The notes under the pieces are model-generated. The model had not been told where the DNA came from and searched no databases. It saw only the letters and a list, made by a program, of their open reading frames with translations. Below are positions 1 through 33,010 of a DNA stretch of 33,010 nucleotides, piece after piece (position 1 is the stretch's first letter; every line of letters begins with the position of its first letter). This stretch comes from Lachnospiraceae bacterium (lineage in GTDB: Bacteria; Bacillota_A; Clostridia; Lachnospirales; Lachnospiraceae), in NCBI GenBank assembly GCA_028694115.1, contig JAQUUB010000046.1, forward strand, positions 1 to 33,010. Reading direction: 5' to 3'. A program made the translations under genes and the position numbers.

Positions 1-27
1 TGTAAGCTGTCAGCAAAAACGTCAAAA
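1..27. repeat. Left terminal inverted repeat / transposase end site
   Basis: The first 27 bases match the reverse complement of the last 27 bases (32984-33010) at 19 of 27 positions, including the outermost TGTAA and an inner GTCAAAA. TG...CA ends are typical of Mu-like elements cut by a DDE transposase. Read on the minus strand the site contains TTGACGTTTTTGCTGA, related to the other end sites. This is the end distal to the repressor, equivalent to the Mu right (S) end. Confidence 0.75.
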
Positions 28-732: not shown

Positions 733-869
733 TACTCTGTGTAATCCTCTCCTGTAATTTGTTTATATTCCTCTTTTGTAATCCATTTGCCTACTGCCGC
801 CCTAACTCTGTCTGTGCTCCAGAAGCCTTTATCATAATACTGTTTAACCTTTTGAAAATTAGCACTCAT
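732..869 (-). CDS. XkdX-like small tail-region protein
   Basis: A 45-codon ORF begins with ATG at 869, overlapping the TGA of the upstream gene (ATGA). It encodes a peptide with YYDKGFWSTDRVRAAVGKW, then ITKEEYKQITGEDY. This pattern (YDKGxW, then K.ITxEEYxxITGxDY) is the signature of the XkdX family found at the end of tail modules in PBSX and many Firmicutes phages. Its function is unknown. Overlaps with the genes on both sides (ATGA and TAATG) show tight translational coupling. It is short and would be missed by a 60-residue cutoff. Confidence 0.85.
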   Translation of the reverse strand: MSANFQKVKQYYDKGFWSTDRVRAAVGKWITKEEYKQITGEDYTE

Positions 870-1102
870 AAGACAACCCCCATTTCCATTGCAATAAAGT
901 CTACATCTGATTGCAGTCTCTCATAATCTTCATAGATTGTATATTCAGATGCTAACATCTTCTTTTCCTGATAATGGTACATATCCGGTTTATCATCTGT
1001 TCCTGGAATAAGTTCAATATTTTTTCTGACATATACTATTCCATCGATCTCTTCATATAATAGAGTTTTCTCTGTACTCTCCACACTATTCCACGTATTC
1101 AT
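866..1102 (-). CDS. Small acidic tail-region protein
   Basis: This 78-residue protein starts after a strong GGAGGATATA site 9 bases downstream of the RT stop. It is acidic, with a predicted beta start (LLYEEIDGIVYVRKNIELIPG) and a C-terminal helix containing DYERLQSDVDFIAMEMGVVL. Small proteins that end in a D...FIAMMxGVEL-like helix commonly sit just before XkdX in Firmicutes phages, so I read it as part of the tail/host-range cassette. Its place next to the RT makes an accessory DGR role possible, but it is shorter than Avd proteins and I see no basic helical-bundle pattern. Confidence 0.7.
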   Translation of the reverse strand: MNTWNSVESTEKTLLYEEIDGIVYVRKNIELIPGTDDKPDMYHYQEKKMLASEYTIYEDYERLQSDVDFIAMEMGVVL

Positions 1103-1111
1103 TATATCCTC

Positions 1112-2200
1112 CTATGCTGCTACATTCTGCATCTTATCCTTTTTGGATACATAGTTCTTCATCCGCTTTATATCAACGTTTGGTTTAACGTAAGTTAAAA
1201 ACGAATTGTAGGTATCTGTGTGTGTTATCCATCCCATATAGGAAAGCATTTTACGGCAATCATATACAGAAGGTTTATCCTTCTTTCCTATCCTTCTGGC
1301 AGTTCTCATAATAGAATAATAGATAGATCTTCTTATTGTGATTCTATTTCTGTGGAAAACAAATCCAATAAAATCAACAGCTCTTCCTATTACCTTTGTT
1401 TCTCCCTTAACTGTCTTTTCATACTCTATTTTGTATACCTGCCAGTTTTCCTTAATCTTTAGCTCCATTGTAGCCAAATAATCTTTTATACTTTGAACGT
1501 TCTTATGCAGCTGCTTCTTGCTTGCTCCGAACAGATACATATTGTCTATGTATCTTACATAGGTTTTAACCTTTAAAACTTGTTTTATATAATGATCTAA
1601 TGGTGTTAAAATCCAGTTTGCAAACCACTGTGAAGTATAGAATCCAATAGGAAGTTCATCTTCTCCTGATTCAATTATCATATACACAATCCATAAGAAA
1701 TCTTCATCATGAATAATCTTAGACAACCTTCTCTTCAGGTACCTGGTCTTCACACTTTGAAAGAACTTCTTTATATCCAGCTCCGCTACATATCTTGTAT
1801 TCTTTGTATCCTTTAAAGCTTTCTGAATATACCTTTTTGCATAATGAGGTCCTTTCTTTGGAATGCTTCCGCATGAGTACTCATACATTCCTTTCTGAAG
1901 AATAGGAATGAGCACCTGCATCACTGCATGGTGTATGATCTGTTCATATTGGTAATCCGGTTGAATAATTTCTCTGGTCTTACTTCTGGATCCTTCGTTA
2001 ATAACTTTCTTCACATGGGTTCTTGGTCCCCATGTTCTGTAAATGAGCATCCTCTGAATCTTTGGAATATAATAATCCTTATGATCCAGTATTTCCTTTA
2101 CATCTCTTCTATCACGCTTTCCTTTTGATGAATTCATGATAGCTTTATCCAGGTTATCATAGGCAATTGCCTTTTCCATAAGGTGATTATAACTTTTCAT
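1112..2200 (-). CDS. DGR reverse transcriptase
   Basis: This 362-residue reverse transcriptase copies the adjacent template repeat for mutagenic retrohoming into the variable repeat. RT motifs run in order: the LDIKKFFQSV segment carrying the first catalytic Asp; LPIGFYTSQWFAN, with SQ in place of the QG common in other RTs, which is the DGR-type signature; and YVRYIDNMYLFG, where the usual YxDD box reads YIDN. A basic C-terminal thumb follows. There is no maturase or endonuclease domain, as expected for a DGR RT. The gene lies directly after the TR and is preceded by an AGAGGATAAG ribosome site. Adenine-only TR/VR differences show the system has been active. The D-to-N change at the second Asp is the only odd point in the active site. 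Confidence 0.93.
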   Translation of the reverse strand: MKSYNHLMEKAIAYDNLDKAIMNSSKGKRDRRDVKEILDHKDYYIPKIQRMLIYRTWGPRTHVKKVINEGSRSKTREIIQPDYQYEQIIHHAVMQVLIPILQKGMYEYSCGSIPKKGPHYAKRYIQKALKDTKNTRYVAELDIKKFFQSVKTRYLKRRLSKIIHDEDFLWIVYMIIESGEDELPIGFYTSQWFANWILTPLDHYIKQVLKVKTYVRYIDNMYLFGASKKQLHKNVQSIKDYLATMELKIKENWQVYKIEYEKTVKGETKVIGRAVDFIGFVFHRNRITIRRSIYYSIMRTARRIGKKDKPSVYDCRKMLSYMGWITHTDTYNSFLTYVKPNVDIKRMKNYVSKKDKMQNVAA

Positions 2201-2300
2201 CTTTCTTATCCTCTAAAGGGCTTTCGACTTGCTACTAACCCCTTCCTGTATCGAGTTTATTTCCACCAAGCGGTGAGGATATAAGAGTGCATTAACTTTG

Positions 2301-2420
2301 TTTCTTGGACAAGAATGGGCGGCACCGATGTTCCAGTCGGCATTGGCAGCGGTGTTGTTGAGGTTCGAGCAGAACGGACCGCACAACAGCGAGTTGCTGC
2401 AGTTACCACCCACGAGAGCG
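2301..2420 (-). repeat. DGR template repeat (TR)
   Basis: Positions 2316-2420 align without gaps to the VR at 2510-2614: 95 of 105 bases are identical, and all 10 differences are at adenines of the TR coding (minus) strand. The TR reads in frame like the VR, with AAC/AAT codons exactly where the VR has Ala, Asp or Tyr. Similarity continues to 2301 after a two-base length difference, where TR has TTCTTGTCCAAGAA, an inverted repeat, and VR has TTTCTTACAAGAAA. This changed 3' part is the expected IMH*/IMH distinction. The TR lies between the VR gene and the RT. It is GC-rich compared with the surrounding AT-rich DNA. Confidence 0.93.
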
Positions 2421-2462
2421 CACTCTTATACCCTTAAATCTTTTTATTTTTTTTAGTTCAGC

Positions 2463-2476
2463 GGGGGAGATCCCCC
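2463..2476. other. GC-rich hairpin between VR and TR
   Basis: GGGGGAGATCCCCC forms a 5-6 bp GC stem with a 2-4 base loop, about 35 bases downstream of the VR on the coding strand. It is followed by an A-rich tract rather than a U run, so it is not a normal minus-strand terminator. In the Bordetella phage DGR a hairpin/cruciform just downstream of the VR promotes retrohoming; this one is placed to do the same. That role is inference. Confidence 0.5.
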
Positions 2477-2484
2477 GTTCCCCC

Positions 2485-4044
2485 CTAAAGAACAGGTTTC
2501 TTGTAAGAAAGGGCGGCACCGAAGTACCAGCCGGCATAGGCAGCGGTGTCGGCGAGGGCCGAGCAGAACGGACCGCACAACAGCGAGTTGCTGCAGTTAC
2601 CACCCACGAGAGCGATATCGGTCTGGCTATTGTTAAACCATAATCCATCAGCCAGATAAGTACTAGAGCTTCCACTTGCCGTGACTGGAATAATACCAAA
2701 TCCATTAGCAATGTTAACTCCAGAGATATATCCTCCGCTTGTTCCTCCAGGTGTCGCGGATGCAACAGTAAGATAACCACTACCTGTAAGATTGTATCCT
2801 TTTACTGTACTTCCATCGTCTGTTCCATAGGTCATTTTAATCTTCTGGGTTCCACTTACATTAATCCATCCAAGCAATCTTCTCCACTGATTTCCCCAGT
2901 AGTTTTCAATACCAAATACCTTAACACCCTTTCCGGTTCCGTTTGAACCCCAGAAAAGACCATTTGAATTCATGGTGCCTGTTATCAATAAATCACTTGC
3001 TGAAGAACCACCTGTATAATGACCATTACCAAATATCTTCTGTCCATCTGTTCCTTTACCCATAAGAGTAAGCAATAAGTTTATACAGAATCTGTCAACA
3101 GCCAGATCAGGTTCCCAACCATCTCCATTAGTTTCAGCATAAGACATTTCCTGCTGTGCTGTCTTATTGTTCATACAAGGCTGACCACTTAAGGATCTCA
3201 TTTTATTGTTTACCAGGGAGCCGTTATATGCTGCCATGTAAACAGCCGGAAGAATAGAACCATTTCTGTCGTAATGCATCCACGCATGATAAGATTCATT
3301 AATTCGCTTATTTGCAATCTTAACATGGAGCTTTGTTCCAACCTGATAGCAATAGAACCAGATTGTTTTAAACTCAACCATGGCATTTTTTGACTGAGAA
3401 GTATCTGCAATCTCACTGAGCGAACCATCTTCTCTTAATGCCATGTTATCCCGGTTCAGATAATATGCAACGTTTCCATCCGGATCAAGCATACAAGGTC
3501 TTGACATAAAGAACGCATTCTTAAATGAACCATAGTTAAAGGCTCCTGTTTCATAATCCATATAAGCCGGTACCAGATTCACTGACTTACCTTCATATTC
3601 AACATTATTTTCTGTATCTGCTTTGGAAGTATCATATACAAATTCATACAACTCAGTGTCTGTAAAACGATTGTTTTCATTAATACTTATAGAGCTTGTG
3701 TCTGCTGCCGGGAATGCCATGTAATAGAAGTCAGATACTGAACCATCTTCTGTGATAGTGTCAATGTATCCATCTGAAGCATACTGGTCTCTGACCTTAT
3801 TTACTACTATTGGAGTTCCATCTTTAATTCCAGTTGGATAAGAACCCTTCTTTCTAAGAATTGTTGTCTGTGCCCAGGAAGATATCAAAATACCATTGAT
3901 ATAGGTATCTTCCGGATCTCCCCATTTTAAAGTGACTGTTTTGCTTTCTTCGTCCTGGAACATTGTTAGACCAGTACAAAGCTGCGGTGCAACACCACCA
4001 TATCCAAACTGCTTAGCGTATATAACATTATCTACGACTGACAT
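2485..4044 (-). CDS. DGR-diversified tail receptor-binding protein
   Basis: This 519-residue protein is the DGR target and probable host-receptor ligand at the tail tip. I start it at the ATG at 4044, which follows AAGGAGATAAAT, rather than at an upstream ATG without a ribosome site. Residues about 20-80 resemble a fibronectin-III-like strand pattern. The C-terminal half has C-type-lectin/FGE-like features (ENYWGNQWRRLLG, then GLWFNNSQTD) and ends in GGNCSNSLLCGPFCS...GWYFGAALS, the region encoded by the VR. Variable positions include Ala, Ala, Asp, Tyr, Gly, Tyr, Phe and Leu, where the TR encodes Asn, Asn, Asn, Asn, Asp, Asn, Ile and His. It is the last gene before the TR and RT, and follows the baseplate genes. 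Confidence 0.9.
   Translation of the reverse strand: MSVVDNVIYAKQFGYGGVAPQLCTGLTMFQDEESKTVTLKWGDPEDTYINGILISSWAQTTILRKKGSYPTGIKDGTPIVVNKVRDQYASDGYIDTITEDGSVSDFYYMAFPAADTSSISINENNRFTDTELYEFVYDTSKADTENNVEYEGKSVNLVPAYMDYETGAFNYGSFKNAFFMSRPCMLDPDGNVAYYLNRDNMALREDGSLSEIADTSQSKNAMVEFKTIWFYCYQVGTKLHVKIANKRINESYHAWMHYDRNGSILPAVYMAAYNGSLVNNKMRSLSGQPCMNNKTAQQEMSYAETNGDGWEPDLAVDRFCINLLLTLMGKGTDGQKIFGNGHYTGGSSASDLLITGTMNSNGLFWGSNGTGKGVKVFGIENYWGNQWRRLLGWINVSGTQKIKMTYGTDDGSTVKGYNLTGSGYLTVASATPGGTSGGYISGVNIANGFGIIPVTASGSSSTYLADGLWFNNSQTDIALVGGNCSNSLLCGPFCSALADTAAYAGWYFGAALSYKKPVL
2497..2614 (-). repeat. DGR variable repeat (VR)
   Basis: The VR is the 3' end of the target gene, up to 12 bases before the stop. 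Relative to the TR all 10 substitutions in the 105-base aligned core are at template adenines: AAC to GCC twice, AAC to GAC, AAT to TAT, GAC to GGC, AAC to TAC, ATC to TTC and CAT to CTT on the coding strand. Substitutions cluster in the 3' half; the upstream part, coding for GGNCSNSLLCGPFC, is identical to the TR although it also contains adenines. The distal end forms an inverted repeat, TTTCTTACAAGAAA. Confidence 0.93.
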
Positions 4045-4054
4045 ATTTATCTCC

Positions 4055-4438
4055 TTATGCTTTAACCACATCTCCCACTGTAGATGTTATTGTTCCATCT
4101 TCATTGAAGACTGTATCTTTGGTTATCATATTTCCTTCCAGATCAGTAATAATCTCCGTGATAGAACCATCAGTATTAAACTTGGTTATCTTTGTTCCAA
4201 TGTCCAATACTTCTGTTACCGATCCATCATCATTAAATGATACATTACTGTTTTTGAAGTCGTATAAGCTTCTTACCATTTCCTTAAGCTCTGCACCTCC
4301 GACTTCATCACCTATGGTTTTGTAAGAGGTCATATCTGATATTCTGTCATATCCATCAGCACGTTTGGTTATCTCATATTTTCGTTCTGTATTGACCTCT
4401 TCGTTTAATACATCATCCTTATAGTCCAGCTTTAACAT
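4055..4438 (-). CDS. Small tail protein upstream of the DGR target
   Basis: This 127-residue acidic protein is read from the ATG at 4438, after GGAAAGGAGTAAA. Its C-terminal half is a beta-repeat with DGS(V/I)TE motifs: NDDGSVTEVLD, NTDGSITEIIT and NEDGTITSTVG, each about 20-25 residues apart, suggesting a small beta-helix or beta-hairpin stack. Such repeats are common in phage tail-spike and baseplate decoration proteins. It ends 10 bases before the receptor-binding gene and overlaps the preceding gene by 7 bases. A role as connector or chaperone of the receptor-binding protein is plausible but unproven. Confidence 0.7.
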   Translation of the reverse strand: MLKLDYKDDVLNEEVNTERKYEITKRADGYDRISDMTSYKTIGDEVGGAELKEMVRSLYDFKNSNVSFNDDGSVTEVLDIGTKITKFNTDGSITEIITDLEGNMITKDTVFNEDGTITSTVGDVVKA

Positions 4439-23784: not shown

Positions 23785-24714
23785 TTACTTGCCAGCCTTA
23801 AGAACCGCTCTTGACTTTGGACCTATACGCTTATCCGGTGCCTTGGTGCTGTATGTCTCTGGATGAGCAACCTGGAATTCTCTTACTGCTTTATCTGTCA
23901 GTTTTCCATATGCTCCATCGATGCTGTCATAGGTCTTTCCTCCGAAAGTATAGGTCTTTGCCATATGTCCATATGACACGAGGTAATACTGCAGCCACTT
24001 CACATATTCGACGGACATTGCAAGTCTTCCAAGATAGAGTGTATAGGTTGGTTCCTGATATGGATTTTTTATCACATTGGCAGCAGGTGTCTGATCTTTG
24101 CTCTCTGCATCCTGATACAGGACATTCATATCAACAGCTCCGGAGATACCAGGCACAGATCCGGTAGAAGCGAACTGCCATCCGAATAATGTCTGTGTGA
24201 TAACAGGCTTATAGCTTTCATTTGGATATGTACCAAATGAAATTGTCTTCTTAGATGGATAACCAGCAACCCAGAACTCATTCTCAAAGGCTTTGGTATC
24301 AATTACATTCTTATACCAGTCCTTATTGCAATAAATTCCAAATGGGAAGTCATACTTTTTGGCAACTGCTTCTGCTGCTTTTACAATTTTTGTAATAGCT
24401 GCCTTGCCAAGTGCTCTGAGCTTAACCCATTCAATATCATACCAGATGGTACAGTAGATACCGTTTTCTCTAAGAAGCTTACATACCAGCGTCATTTCCT
24501 CTGCAGCAGCTTCTTCCGTTAATGCATACACATACTTGTAAACATCAAATGGAATGTTATTGTCTCTGCAGCCTTTTACATTATTCACAAACTGATAATC
24601 TGTCTTGCCGGATCCTCTGGTGGATCGGATAATAACAAACTGGACTCCTGCTTTTGCTGTGTTCTTCCAGTTAATGACTCCCTGATTATCAGATACATCA
24701 ATTCCTAACTTCAT
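23785..24714 (-). CDS. GH25 endolysin with peptidoglycan-binding domain
   Basis: This 309-residue endolysin has a GH25 muramidase domain (1-210): LGIDVSDNQGVINW with the first catalytic-region Asp, and WYDIEW (Asp93, Glu95) as the catalytic pair, ending with GVDMNVLYQ-like GAVDMNVLYQ. A linker leads to a C-terminal domain (about 230-309) with VKWLQYYLVSYGH, SIDGAYGKLTDKAVREFQ and RIGPKSRAVLKA, the peptidoglycan_binding_1 pattern. There is no signal peptide, so the holin would release it. It overlaps the GemA gene by ATGA and, unusually, lies before the mor gene rather than with the holin. Confidence 0.93.
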   Translation of the reverse strand: MKLGIDVSDNQGVINWKNTAKAGVQFVIIRSTRGSGKTDYQFVNNVKGCRDNNIPFDVYKYVYALTEEAAAEEMTLVCKLLRENGIYCTIWYDIEWVKLRALGKAAITKIVKAAEAVAKKYDFPFGIYCNKDWYKNVIDTKAFENEFWVAGYPSKKTISFGTYPNESYKPVITQTLFGWQFASTGSVPGISGAVDMNVLYQDAESKDQTPAANVIKNPYQEPTYTLYLGRLAMSVEYVKWLQYYLVSYGHMAKTYTFGGKTYDSIDGAYGKLTDKAVREFQVAHPETYSTKAPDKRIGPKSRAVLKAGK

Positions 24715-27412: not shown

Positions 27413-28339
27413 CTACCTCCCAATGTTCATTTCTCTCATCATCCTTGCAATTGTTCCAGCGTTTACATCCTGGTTAAATACGGCAGCAGTATTAACAAAT
27501 ACATTGACTGCTCCACGAAGACCATAATTTGTGTGACAGATCTGATACAGAATATCAATTGCATCCTCCTGAAGGTCTGCATTCCGGAACACATTTCTGA
27601 TATCATCTTTCTTGATATTCTGAATTGATACTGGTTCTCTCATTCCTATTCTGGAGAAGAGCTGTGCAAAGTCTGCTTTACCGGTTCCCTTCAGTTTGGA
27701 ATATACATCTTCATTACCGATTAGGCAGATACCAATGCCGGACTCATCTGCCAGACATCGAATATGGTTAAGAGCTTTGACTGTCAGATGCTGTGCTTCA
27801 TCAATCAGGATTACTCTTCCGGATCCTTTCAGTCTTGTGATAATCTCATTGGTAATCTTCCTTGCTACTCTCTCACGTACACCAAGCTGCTCTGCAAGAA
27901 GCTCATTTACACCGGTAATTGATGAATATGTAGGAGATATGGTAATTCCGATTGCTAAAGAGTTACCCTGCAGGTAATGTCTAAAGGCTTGTGTCTTGCC
28001 AATGCCGGCATCACCATACACTACTGAGATTTTTCCTCTCAAATGGCTGTACTTAATCGCATTTTCAACCAGCTTTGAAACACTTGTTTCTACGAATGGG
28101 GGATCTGTAAGAGTGATTTTCTTTTTCTCGCTGATCTCAACAAGGTTCTTGACCTTTGGAACAATGGTATGTGGGGTTTTATAGTTTCCTGCAAGGAAAC
28201 TTGATAAAGCTCCTGAAGATATTCCAAGTTCCTGTGCTACTAATGCCTGTGTCTTTTTGGTTTTATCTATATAATTTCTTATGAATTCTATTGCCTGTTC
28301 TATTGACATTTCATCTATTACTGTGTTTAATTCATCCAT
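27413..28339 (-). CDS. MuB-like ATPase (target-capture protein)
   Basis: I start this 308-residue protein at the ATG at 28339 after GGAGGATAACGCA; a second ATG lies at 28354. An N-terminal HTH (about 20-55, TQALVAQELGISSGALSSFLAGNYKT) is followed by an AAA+ ATPase with YGDAGIGKTQAFRHY (Walker A), GRVILIDEAQHL (Walker B) and an arginine-finger region FSRIGMREPV. This is the MuB layout. MuB binds target DNA, activates MuA and keeps transposition away from the element itself. It is transcribed immediately after the transposase gene. Confidence 0.93.
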   Translation of the reverse strand: MDELNTVIDEMSIEQAIEFIRNYIDKTKKTQALVAQELGISSGALSSFLAGNYKTPHTIVPKVKNLVEISEKKKITLTDPPFVETSVSKLVENAIKYSHLRGKISVVYGDAGIGKTQAFRHYLQGNSLAIGITISPTYSSITGVNELLAEQLGVRERVARKITNEIITRLKGSGRVILIDEAQHLTVKALNHIRCLADESGIGICLIGNEDVYSKLKGTGKADFAQLFSRIGMREPVSIQNIKKDDIRNVFRNADLQEDAIDILYQICHTNYGLRGAVNVFVNTAAVFNQDVNAGTIARMMREMNIGR

Positions 28340-28356
28340 TGCGTTATCCTCCATTT

Positions 28357-30297
28357 TTATTGGTTATTTTTTTCAGCCTGGATTCTTTCCAGAGCTGCGG
28401 TCCAGTCTATTGGTTCCTCTGCTCCTACAGCCTTGCTGATATCATGGTTATTTACTGCTTCATCCAGCTTTCTGATTGGAGTAATTATCTTAGGCTCCAA
28501 TCTCTCACCTGCAGCAATATTTCTTTCAGCTTCCTCCAAAACAAGTGCAAGAGCATCCTCTGCCTTGATATCCTTTTCTTTCTTATATGCCCTAACGACT
28601 TTTTCAAGCTGTCTCTGCTCGTGCATCTTCTCAGCCACATCTTCCTTGCTTGCAAAATAGCTTAGTGCTGTGTGCTGCTGTGCCGTGCAAAGGAACCGAT
28701 CCTGCTCATCATAGACACGAACCTCCGCAAGATCATCCGGATTAAATCTGAAATAAACCTTTTCTCCAATGTGGTTATACAGAAGCTCATTTGACCAGAA
28801 TGTAATCTCTGTGTCGTAGATCTTAAGCACAACTCCATCTCTTCTGACTGATACCATTCTGCTGTTACGCATCATCATCAGGTTAAGCTCGTCCTTGGTT
28901 GCCGTTCTCATTTCAATAAGGTTGTCAGCATATACCTGATTCCTGGTCTTGTTTCCCATACCGACACCGCCATGCTCTGTGAAATTAAAGATTCCTTCAA
29001 TATAAAGGTCTACATAATCCACAAAATCAGTATAAGGTGTGAAGTTGGAAGCTTTCTTTCCCATTTCTTTGAGTCGTTCAGGTCTCTCTGCAATGGTACC
29101 TCCTGTATATCCTTCAAACAGCTTTGAGAACATATTCTTAACATCTGTGAATGCACGTTCAATGATCTTTGCTCTTGCATTTCTTACAAGTGCGGTTCTG
29201 AAATCTATTCCAAGATTGTCAAGGATCGTTGGTGCAGCGTGTTCGTTTTCTCTTCCGTTCTTACGGAAACCACGACCACCTATATCGTGTGTTAAAAATT
29301 CGCGTCCATTATCTGAGAGGATTTTCTTAGGTATTCCATAGCGTTCAATACCTCTTCTGAGAGCCTGCAGTGTTGCATCCGAACACGGAGCATCTGTCAC
29401 ATACCAGCCAACCATTTTTCTTGATCTGACATCAAGGAATCCGGTAAGGTATACTCTGATCGGCTTCTTATGCTCTCCATCATCCACGAAAATATCAAAC
29501 GTATGGTTATCACAAACCCATATATCATTAGATTCAAGATCACCATAGGTTCTTTTAATGTAAGGAGCACATTCATCCTTAAATGCTTTCTGTCCTAATC
29601 TGAAATACTTCAGAACCGGTACAGGTATGCTTCTCTCAATTTCTCTCGCAAAAGAGTTTTCACTTGCCAATGGCAGCAGGTCTGTTAATTCCTCATGTTT
29701 GATTTCCAGCATGGTAAGACGGATACACTCTTTAACCGATTTCTGTGACTGGTCCAGGTAATAGTATTCAAAGATTCCAAACACCTTATCCGGTACAGCC
29801 TTCTTATGGTTTTCATGTTTTCCTCTGCCATCTGCCAGAGCACAATCTCCAAATTCCTTCCAGGCTTTTTTCTTCCTATATAACATCCTTATAGAAAACT
29901 GCATATCAGGATAGGAAGTATTAAGGAAAGTGACATACTTCTCATCAATTTCACTTTTCTTTCCTGGTTGACTTCTGTAATCATCCCATTCATTCAGAAT
30001 TTTCTTCCAGAATGCAACCTCTGATCGTTCATCCTCTGTCAGCTGCTCCACATTCTCTGGAATCAGATATGGCTTCTCCGGTTTAGTTTCTGCAGACTTG
30101 ATATTGTGGATCCGGTTGTACTTCTTTATGATTTTTGGATCACACTCAGCTAGTGGAATAGAATACTTAACACCATTTTTTCCACCTGTGCTGAATTTTT
30201 CAGTTGCGAATATTTTACCTTCAGATATAAGTCTCCTTACGTGTCTTTCAGTACATCCACGCAATTCAGCATATTCTTCAGTTGATATCTGCTCCAC
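28357..30297 (-). CDS. MuA-like DDE transposase
   Basis: This 646-residue transposase starts at a GTG (30297) after AAGGTGGTGATTCT. An N-terminal HTH (about 1-30, STEEYAELRGCTERHVRRLISEG) is followed by a helical linker and an rve catalytic core: VCDNHTFD with Asp263, KILSDNGREF with Asp329, and IIERAF with Glu380. The spacing is close to MuA's Asp269-Asp336-Glu392. A beta-barrel and a C-terminal charged region (KVVRAYKKEKDIKAEDALAL) complete the MuA layout. It cuts and joins the phage ends for replication and integration. Confidence 0.96.
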   Translation of the reverse strand: MEQISTEEYAELRGCTERHVRRLISEGKIFATEKFSTGGKNGVKYSIPLAECDPKIIKKYNRIHNIKSAETKPEKPYLIPENVEQLTEDERSEVAFWKKILNEWDDYRSQPGKKSEIDEKYVTFLNTSYPDMQFSIRMLYRKKKAWKEFGDCALADGRGKHENHKKAVPDKVFGIFEYYYLDQSQKSVKECIRLTMLEIKHEELTDLLPLASENSFAREIERSIPVPVLKYFRLGQKAFKDECAPYIKRTYGDLESNDIWVCDNHTFDIFVDDGEHKKPIRVYLTGFLDVRSRKMVGWYVTDAPCSDATLQALRRGIERYGIPKKILSDNGREFLTHDIGGRGFRKNGRENEHAAPTILDNLGIDFRTALVRNARAKIIERAFTDVKNMFSKLFEGYTGGTIAERPERLKEMGKKASNFTPYTDFVDYVDLYIEGIFNFTEHGGVGMGNKTRNQVYADNLIEMRTATKDELNLMMMRNSRMVSVRRDGVVLKIYDTEITFWSNELLYNHIGEKVYFRFNPDDLAEVRVYDEQDRFLCTAQQHTALSYFASKEDVAEKMHEQRQLEKVVRAYKKEKDIKAEDALALVLEEAERNIAAGERLEPKIITPIRKLDEAVNNHDISKAVGAEEPIDWTAALERIQAEKNNQ

Positions 30298-32983: not shown

Positions 32984-33010
32984 TTTTGACATTCTTAATG
33001 AATATTTACA
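32984..33010. repeat. Right terminal inverted repeat / transposase end site
   Basis: The last 27 bases are the inverted counterpart of positions 1-27 (19/27 identical) and end in TTACA. The site contains TTGACATTCTTAATGA in the plus orientation. It is the end next to the repressor, equivalent to the Mu left (c) end. Confidence 0.75.

What the first reader, a model, noticed from the sequence alone, without database searches (positions are those of the whole stretch)
2301..2614. Active-looking DGR with strictly adenine-specific changes in a tail receptor-binding protein
Over the 105-base gap-free core (TR 2316-2420, VR 2510-2614) there are 10 substitutions and all 10 are at adenines of the TR coding strand (19 adenines in that core). 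They change eight codons (Asn to Ala, Ala, Asp, Tyr, Tyr; Asp to Gly; Ile to Phe; His to Leu). This is the hallmark of DGR mutagenic retrohoming and shows the system has worked. A transposable phage carrying a DGR would diversify receptors while spreading through host chromosomes.
Basis: partly seen in the sequence, partly recalled or inferred. Interest (0 to 1): 0.85.

Follow-up and report, generated by a model that had tools for sequence, protein, structure and literature searches.

The report
Phage hypermutation cassette with altered enzyme
A Mu-like phage genome carries a cassette whose template and tail-gene copies differ only at adenines, and its reverse transcriptase has asparagine where nearly all sampled relatives have the second catalytic aspartate, yet comparison with related phages suggests that enzymes of this kind likely still work.

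Summary
Template repeat (TR) 2311-2420 and variable repeat (VR) 2505-2614, minus strand, differ at 10 of 110 positions, all TR adenines. With an open reverse transcriptase (RT) gene, a tail-gene target and an Rfam RT-18 RNA between TR and RT, this is a diversity-generating retroelement (DGR) in a Mu-like phage, a known combination (Mushu, hankyphage). 'Active-looking' needs care: the RT catalytic box reads YIDN, not YxDD. A 2012 survey calls both aspartates 100% conserved in DGR RTs (passage). Here 3 of 199 homologous proteins and 6 of 167 fetched loci, four of them near-duplicates or repeats in pairs, have YxDN, in three lineages. Two YMDN elements keep the RT under purifying selection (dN/dS about 0.08), and their VRs differ at 15 of 22 adenine sites against 15 of 95 others, so YxDN elements probably still diversify; a helper RT in trans is not excluded. 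The TR is also flanked by a 16-bp helix that covaries across relatives. Host and present activity are unknown.

The parts
2505..2614 (-). variable repeat (VR), last part of the tail gene
   Evidence: 110-base gap-free match to TR, 10 mismatches, all at TR adenines
2311..2420 (-). template repeat (TR)
   Evidence: order VR-TR-RT shared with seven relatives
2485..4071 (-). target tail-protein gene (528 aa; likely start at 4044, 519 aa)
   Evidence: PHROG 5302 tail protein, E 1.1e-76; AlphaFold model pLDDT 90.6; best PDB match the DGR variable protein TaqVP 5vf4, E 2.8e-10 but TM only 0.34/0.45; Mtd weaker, E 5e-3
1112..2200 (-). DGR-type reverse transcriptase (362 aa)
   Evidence: PF00078, PHROG 1423; AlphaFold model pLDDT 92.4, best PDB match 8ub7, a DGR RT in the active state, TM 0.81/0.89
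1541..1543 (-). AAT codon for Asn220, second aspartate position of the YxDD box (YIDN)
2419..2434 (-). 5' arm of the TR-flanking helix, AGGGTATAAGAGTGCG
   Evidence: 16 of 16 positions pair with the 3' arm (14 Watson-Crick, 2 G-U); covaries across relatives; present in MFE and centroid folds
2276..2291 (-). 3' arm of the TR-flanking helix, TGCACTCTTATATCCT
2202..2275 (-). structured spacer RNA between TR and RT, Rfam RT-18 (RF03021)
   Evidence: 58.1 bits, gathering score 41.3, E 8.2e-9
2462..2477 (-). GC-rich inverted repeat downstream of VR, possible target hairpin
   Evidence: read directly: CGGGGGA-TC-TCCCCCG, 27 nt after the VR end
28357..30297 (-). MuA-like transposase
   Evidence: PF09299, PF00665, PF02914; PHROG 310
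27413..28354 (-). MuB-like transposition protein
   Evidence: PHROG 296 DNA transposition protein
1..27 (.). likely phage terminus, TGTAA then GTCAAAA at bases 21-27
   Evidence: read directly; the reverse complement of the other end has the same two words in the same register
32984..33010 (.). likely opposite phage terminus, inverted TGTAA and GTCAAAA
   Evidence: read directly

Best explanation
This is a diversity-generating retroelement in a Mu-like phage that likely works by ordinary adenine-mutagenic retrohoming, with a reverse transcriptase that carries YIDN in place of the usual YxDD catalytic box and is predicted to be still functional. Shown here: TR and VR differ only at TR adenines; the RT gene is open; the target model resembles a DGR variable protein; YxDN occurs in three lineages of this RT family, and two YMDN elements differ from each other mainly at TR-adenine sites while their RT is under purifying selection. 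Inferred: the transcript of the TR is closed by a 16-bp helix between its flanks, which sets the TR next to the RT-18 spacer RNA that would bind and prime the RT; mutated cDNA then replaces the VR and changes the end of the tail protein. Why Asn is tolerated at that catalytic position is unknown.
For: TR/VR 10 of 10 at A. Seven relatives have the same VR-TR-RT order, with 104 of 104 mismatches at TR adenines; that listing showed only pairs with at least 60% at A. [quoted passage not shown] YxDN is not a lone error: P0021 and P0243, 72% and 74% identical to the window's RT over 220 and 152 residues, have YMDN and YVDN. The window and P0243 are sisters in the best trees (FastTree support 0.90), about 0.32 substitutions per site apart, yet the window's TR and VR have no difference at the 91 non-adenine positions, so homing is younger than that split. 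L108 against L129, both YMDN: RT dN 0.030, dS 0.358; VR differs at 15 of 22 adenine sites and 15 of 95 others, Fisher p = 2.9e-6.
Against: The closest full-length RT relative, P0002, has YVDD, and AU tests reject only one of six placements of these four RTs, so Asn in the ancestor of window and P0243 is likely, not proved. The YMDN pairs have more non-adenine mismatches (L108 2 of 17, L129 3 of 11) than 123 YxDD loci (65 of 2025), and L129's TR differs from L108's at 9 of 22 adenine sites, mostly by loss of A: partial decay is possible there. For the third YxDN lineage (L207, L210) no VR could be tested. A YxDD RT from another element could act in trans. The first half of the window's VR is unmutated. 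No read-level variation was examined.
Confidence: 0.62

Rival explanations
1. The DGR worked in the past, but the D-to-N change has killed or nearly killed the RT; the TR/VR pattern is a fossil.
For: The aspartates are described as catalytically essential and 100% conserved in DGR RTs (passage of PMC3521204); 118 of the other 119 homologs in the first set have Asp at this place; the first half of the VR is unmutated.
Against: Two close relatives on other contigs share YxDN; the window's TR and VR have no non-adenine difference; L108/L129 RT dN/dS is about 0.08 and their VRs differ mainly at adenine sites; the window's RT has an open frame and a confident model.
Confidence: 0.22
2. The YxDN RT is inactive but kept for RNA binding, and a YxDD RT of another resident DGR reads its TR in trans.
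For: The spacer RNA is of the RT-18 type found in other DGRs, so a foreign RT might recognise it.
Against: No further TR/VR copy was found in the window, and it would have to hold for several lineages. Not tested in any host genome, because none is held for the window.
Confidence: 0.13
3. An ordinary repeat or gene duplication with chance differences.
For: None found.
Against: p = 3.2e-9 for adenine-only differences, RT and spacer RNA adjacent, and the same anatomy in relatives.
Confidence: 0.01

Closest known systems
DGR of Bordetella phage BPP-1
   Same: order VR-TR-RT in one direction, VR at the end of a tail gene, structured spacer RNA (Rfam Phage_DGR RF03022 there); the window's RT model is closest to a solved DGR RT
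   Different: BPP-1 has Avd between VR and TR and YMDD; the window has no Avd that Pfam recognises, RT-18 RNA and YIDN; its target is matched better by TaqVP than by Mtd
DGRs of transposable phages Mushu (Faecalibacterium) and hankyphage p00 (Bacteroides)
   Same: Mu-type transposition genes plus a DGR towards one end of the genome
   Different: Mushu has bAvd, RT-9 RNA, YMDD and a Hoc-like gene downstream of the RT as target (target named in passages); hankyphage has RT-3 RNA and YCDD
DGRs of Butyrivibrio phage Arawn and Faecalibacterium phage Epona
   Same: RTs among the closest in named phages (45% and 38% identity), same cassette order, adenine-only TR/VR
   Different: no transposase in the Arawn annotation nor in the 15.7 of 49.6 kb of Epona read; YMDD
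Mu-like phage contig IMGVR_UViG_3300010279_000475 (G005)
   Same: transposase 74% identical; 31 of 33 window ORFs tried between 4432 and 30607 match it, in the same order
   Different: no match to RT or target in its 28,736 bases: the tail-tip region with the DGR is a different module

Membership tests
diversity-generating retroelement | TR/VR pair differing at TR adenines | tested here: met
   10 of 10
diversity-generating retroelement | adjacent RT of the DGR type with the SQ motif in domain 4 | tested here: met
   window reads LPIGFYTSQW; PHROG 1423; nearest solved structures are DGR RTs; SQ as a DGR feature from PMC3521204 passages
diversity-generating retroelement | YxDD catalytic box, reported 100% conserved | tested here: not met
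   YIDN in the window; 3 of 199 proteins and 6 of 167 loci have YxDN. Adenine-specific TR/VR pairs occur with YxDN, so it reads as a variant within the family, the TR/VR pair being the defining feature
diversity-generating retroelement | structured RNA between TR and RT | tested here: met
   RT-18, 58.1 bits; 13 of 20 relatives tried also reach the threshold, 7 do not
diversity-generating retroelement | Avd or another accessory gene | tested here: inconclusive
   no Avd family among the 39 window ORFs scanned with Pfam; among the Faecalibacterium phage DGRs of PMC5883640 Avd homologs were found in Mushu and Lagaffe only (passage)
diversity-generating retroelement | GC-rich hairpin 4-34 bp after VR with a 4-nt GRNA loop | tested here: inconclusive
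   CGGGGGA-TC-TCCCCCG at 27 nt is there, but the loop is not GRNA (criteria from PMC3240598 passages)
diversity-generating retroelement | variable protein of the C-type-lectin kind | tested here: met
   best PDB matches TaqVP (E 2.8e-10, TM 0.34/0.45) and, weakly, Mtd
Mu-like transposable phage | MuA and MuB with Gam, GemA, Mor | tested here: met
Mu-like transposable phage | random insertion with 5-bp target duplication | not testable with these tools
   the record appears to end exactly at the termini, no flanking DNA

The most novel reading that the evidence does not exclude
The second catalytic aspartate of the reverse-transcriptase YxDD box is dispensable in DGRs: YxDN enzymes arose at least three times and still diversify their targets, perhaps with altered rate, processivity or error spectrum, in elements whose template RNA is held by an RT-18 type spacer and a helix that closes the TR.
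Probability: 0.5. Interest if true: 0.75.

Novelty: new variant of a known kind. Interest (0 to 1): 0.58.

Why it matters
The second aspartate of YxDD is treated as part of the catalytic core of reverse transcriptases. A set of natural DGR enzymes with Asn there, whose repeats look recently active, would make the need for that residue directly testable and may bear on how adenine-specific infidelity arises. The covarying helix around the TR, next to an Rfam family named only RT-18, suggests how DGRs without a recognisable Avd hold their template RNA.

Tried and rejected
First idea, that YIDN is a one-off lesion or sequencing error: rejected, because P0021 and P0243 share YxDN and L108/L109/L129 and L207/L210 have it in other lineages. 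P0087 matched a YxDN text pattern outside motif C and is YMDD. Third YxDN lineage (L207, L210): VR not testable, the longer contig ends about 330 bases upstream of the TR and holds only one copy. Close relatives of the phage itself: no match in the phage collection at megablast sensitivity for bases 1-25000; no RT above 49% identity to the window's among the loci returned by two IMG/VR scans, the second capped at the best 80 of 472, nor above 47% in the genome scan. A DNA pattern for YxDN with fixed neighbours gave 0. The host genome is not held. Helix in BPP-1, hankyphage and Mushu: not significant (p 0.51, 0.76, 0.07), though AGGG/TCCT-like arms are visible in BPP-1 and Mushu. Literature: no held paper has YMDN with reverse transcriptase, and a search for YxDN, YMDN, YADN or YIDN with reverse transcriptase listed only an E. 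coli genome paper, not opened. The Nature 2025 DGR RNA paper, two DGR papers in NAR and the 2017 structured-RNA paper are not held, so the flanking helix, and a link of RT-18 to DGRs, may already be described. Papers were seen as search listings or passages only; none was read whole.

Full report
Observation. The window is a single 33,010-base record that starts TGTAA... and ends ...TTTACA; both ends carry GTCAAAA at bases 21-27 counted inward, as expected of a transposable phage cut exactly at its termini (read directly). Near one end lie, on the minus strand, a tail gene (2485-4071), a VR at its 3' end (2505-2614), a TR (2311-2420) and an RT gene (1112-2200). TR and VR match without gaps over 110 bases; all 10 differences are at TR adenines (19 adenines in the 105-base core, p = 3.2e-9). 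A scan with the adenines left free found no other copy in the window.

Identity. The RT has PF00078 and PHROG 1423; its AlphaFold model (pLDDT 92.4) is closest to the solved DGR RT 8ub7 (TM 0.81/0.89). The target matches a PHROG tail family, and its model (pLDDT 90.6) is closest to the DGR variable protein TaqVP (E 2.8e-10, TM 0.34/0.45), then, weakly, Mtd. The stretch 2202-2275 between TR and RT is Rfam RT-18; 13 of 20 relatives tried have RT-18 at or just before their RT start, while the spacers of BPP-1, hankyphage and Mushu are Rfam Phage_DGR, RT-3 and RT-9. The genome has MuA, MuB, Gam, GemA, Mor, gp27-like and F-like genes. No Avd family was met in 39 window ORFs scanned with Pfam.

Comparison. 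Of ten RT-bearing loci examined first, seven gave a TR/VR pair, all with order VR-TR-RT and all 104 mismatches at TR adenines (that listing kept only pairs with at least 60% at A). In a larger set, 128 of 168 sequences (167 loci and the window; loci cut short before the RT count as misses) gave a pair; in 123 YxDD loci 1960 of 2025 mismatches are at TR adenines (the extension rule favours adenine mismatches, so the percentage is somewhat flattered, and a pair such as that of L084 looks like a tandem repeat). Among 32 targets, codons with A at TR positions 1 or 2 are more variable than the other codons of the repeat. Of twelve IMG/VR records with a related Mu transposase none has the RT; of four with a related RT none has the transposase; many are short, so absence is weak evidence. 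The genomes of L017 and L018 gave one weak, partial transposase match on another contig and none. The closest Mu-like contig, G005, matches 31 of 33 window ORFs tried between 4432 and 30607 in order, but not the RT or target, so the DGR and tail tip look like an acquired module.

The catalytic box. The window's RT reads YIDN (Asn220, codon 1541-1543). In the first 120 homologous proteins 118 have YxDD and two YxDN; in 199 proteins three are YxDN: the window, P0021 and P0243. In 167 fetched loci six are YxDN, of which L139 is L129's contig again, L109 differs from L108 at one base in 6,092, and L207 and L210 are 99% identical. These are the best-scoring relatives, not a census. On a tree of 133 RTs (duplicate and short ones left out) they fall in three lineages, with four changes by parsimony. 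The DiGReF survey states that both aspartates are 100% conserved in DGR RTs (passage of PMC3521204). The window and P0243 are sisters with moderate support (0.90), but AU tests reject only one of six arrangements with P0002 (YVDD) and P0021.

Does a YxDN element work? Between L108 and L129 (both YMDN, RT 94% identical) the RT has dN 0.030 and dS 0.358; their VRs differ at 15 of 22 adenine sites and at 15 of 95 other sites, against 171 of 1132 in the upstream target gene (Fisher p = 2.9e-6). If their ancestor had YMDN, as both descendants do, the adenine sites were rewritten in a YMDN background. Against this, L108 and L129 have 2 of 17 and 3 of 11 non-adenine TR/VR differences, and the TR of L129 has lost adenines. 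In the window itself there is no non-adenine difference although its RT is about 0.32 substitutions per site from P0243. I therefore think that YxDN enzymes are functional, with a dead enzyme or a helper in trans as the alternatives. Other polymerases with Asn at this place exist (GDN in L proteins of some RNA viruses; recalled, no call).

The flanking helix. AGGGTATAAGAGTGCG at the start of the TR (2434-2419) pairs along all 16 positions with TGCACTCTTATATCCT (2291-2276), directly before RT-18. In 88 non-redundant loci of 128 the best pairing of a locus's own two flanks scores 28.0 on average against 18.9 for flanks of different loci; 63 of 88 exceed the 95th percentile of the latter, and in 35 of 88 the own partner is the best of all. 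With arms chosen by sequence alone (AGGG before, TCCT after the TR; 43 non-redundant of 74 loci with both), the 12 inner positions pair in 72% of cells, against 47% on average and at most 55% in 2000 shuffles of the arms; some loci do not pair in that register. The helix is in the MFE and centroid folds of the window's RNA, although the total energy is not unusual (z = -1.46). For BPP-1, hankyphage and Mushu it is not significant. It recalls the inverted repeats that enclose retron RNAs (recalled). Of the YxDN lineages, the window, L108 and L210 have RT-18 at the gathering score and L129 does not; the helix was seen in the window and in L109 and was not tested in L210.

An oddity. All five adenines in the first half of the TR are unmutated in the VR, although three of the codons concerned are among the most variable in relatives. 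Incomplete mutagenesis, recent crossover or selection could explain it; p about 0.01.

Verdict. The finding is right about the DGR, which is a member of a known kind in a known kind of phage. The new part is the YIDN enzyme and the evidence from relatives that such enzymes persist and probably work.

Noticed in passing
L129 TR 1382-1496 against L108 TR 2276-2392: L129's TR has lost adenines in its second half and largely equals its own VR there, as if VR sequence had been copied back into the TR.
   Followed up: partly
L248 38551-38700 and L249 32875-32974: Rfam families RT-3 and RT-9, named only as RT RNAs, lie in the TR-RT spacers of hankyphage and Mushu, so they look like DGR RNAs.
   Followed up: partly
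window 738-872, 866-1102 and 166-732: Small genes after the RT: 738-872 matches PHROG 134 of unknown function and three relatives; 866-1102 and 166-732 match no Pfam or PHROG family and none of the contigs tried.
   Followed up: no
P0002, residues 1-71: The closest full-length RT is given as one frame that begins inside what looks like its TR, so TR and RT are in the same open frame there.
   Followed up: no
window 23785-24714: The lysis enzyme (glycosyl hydrolase family 25) lies in the early Mu region between Mor and GemA, not with the tail genes.
   Followed up: no
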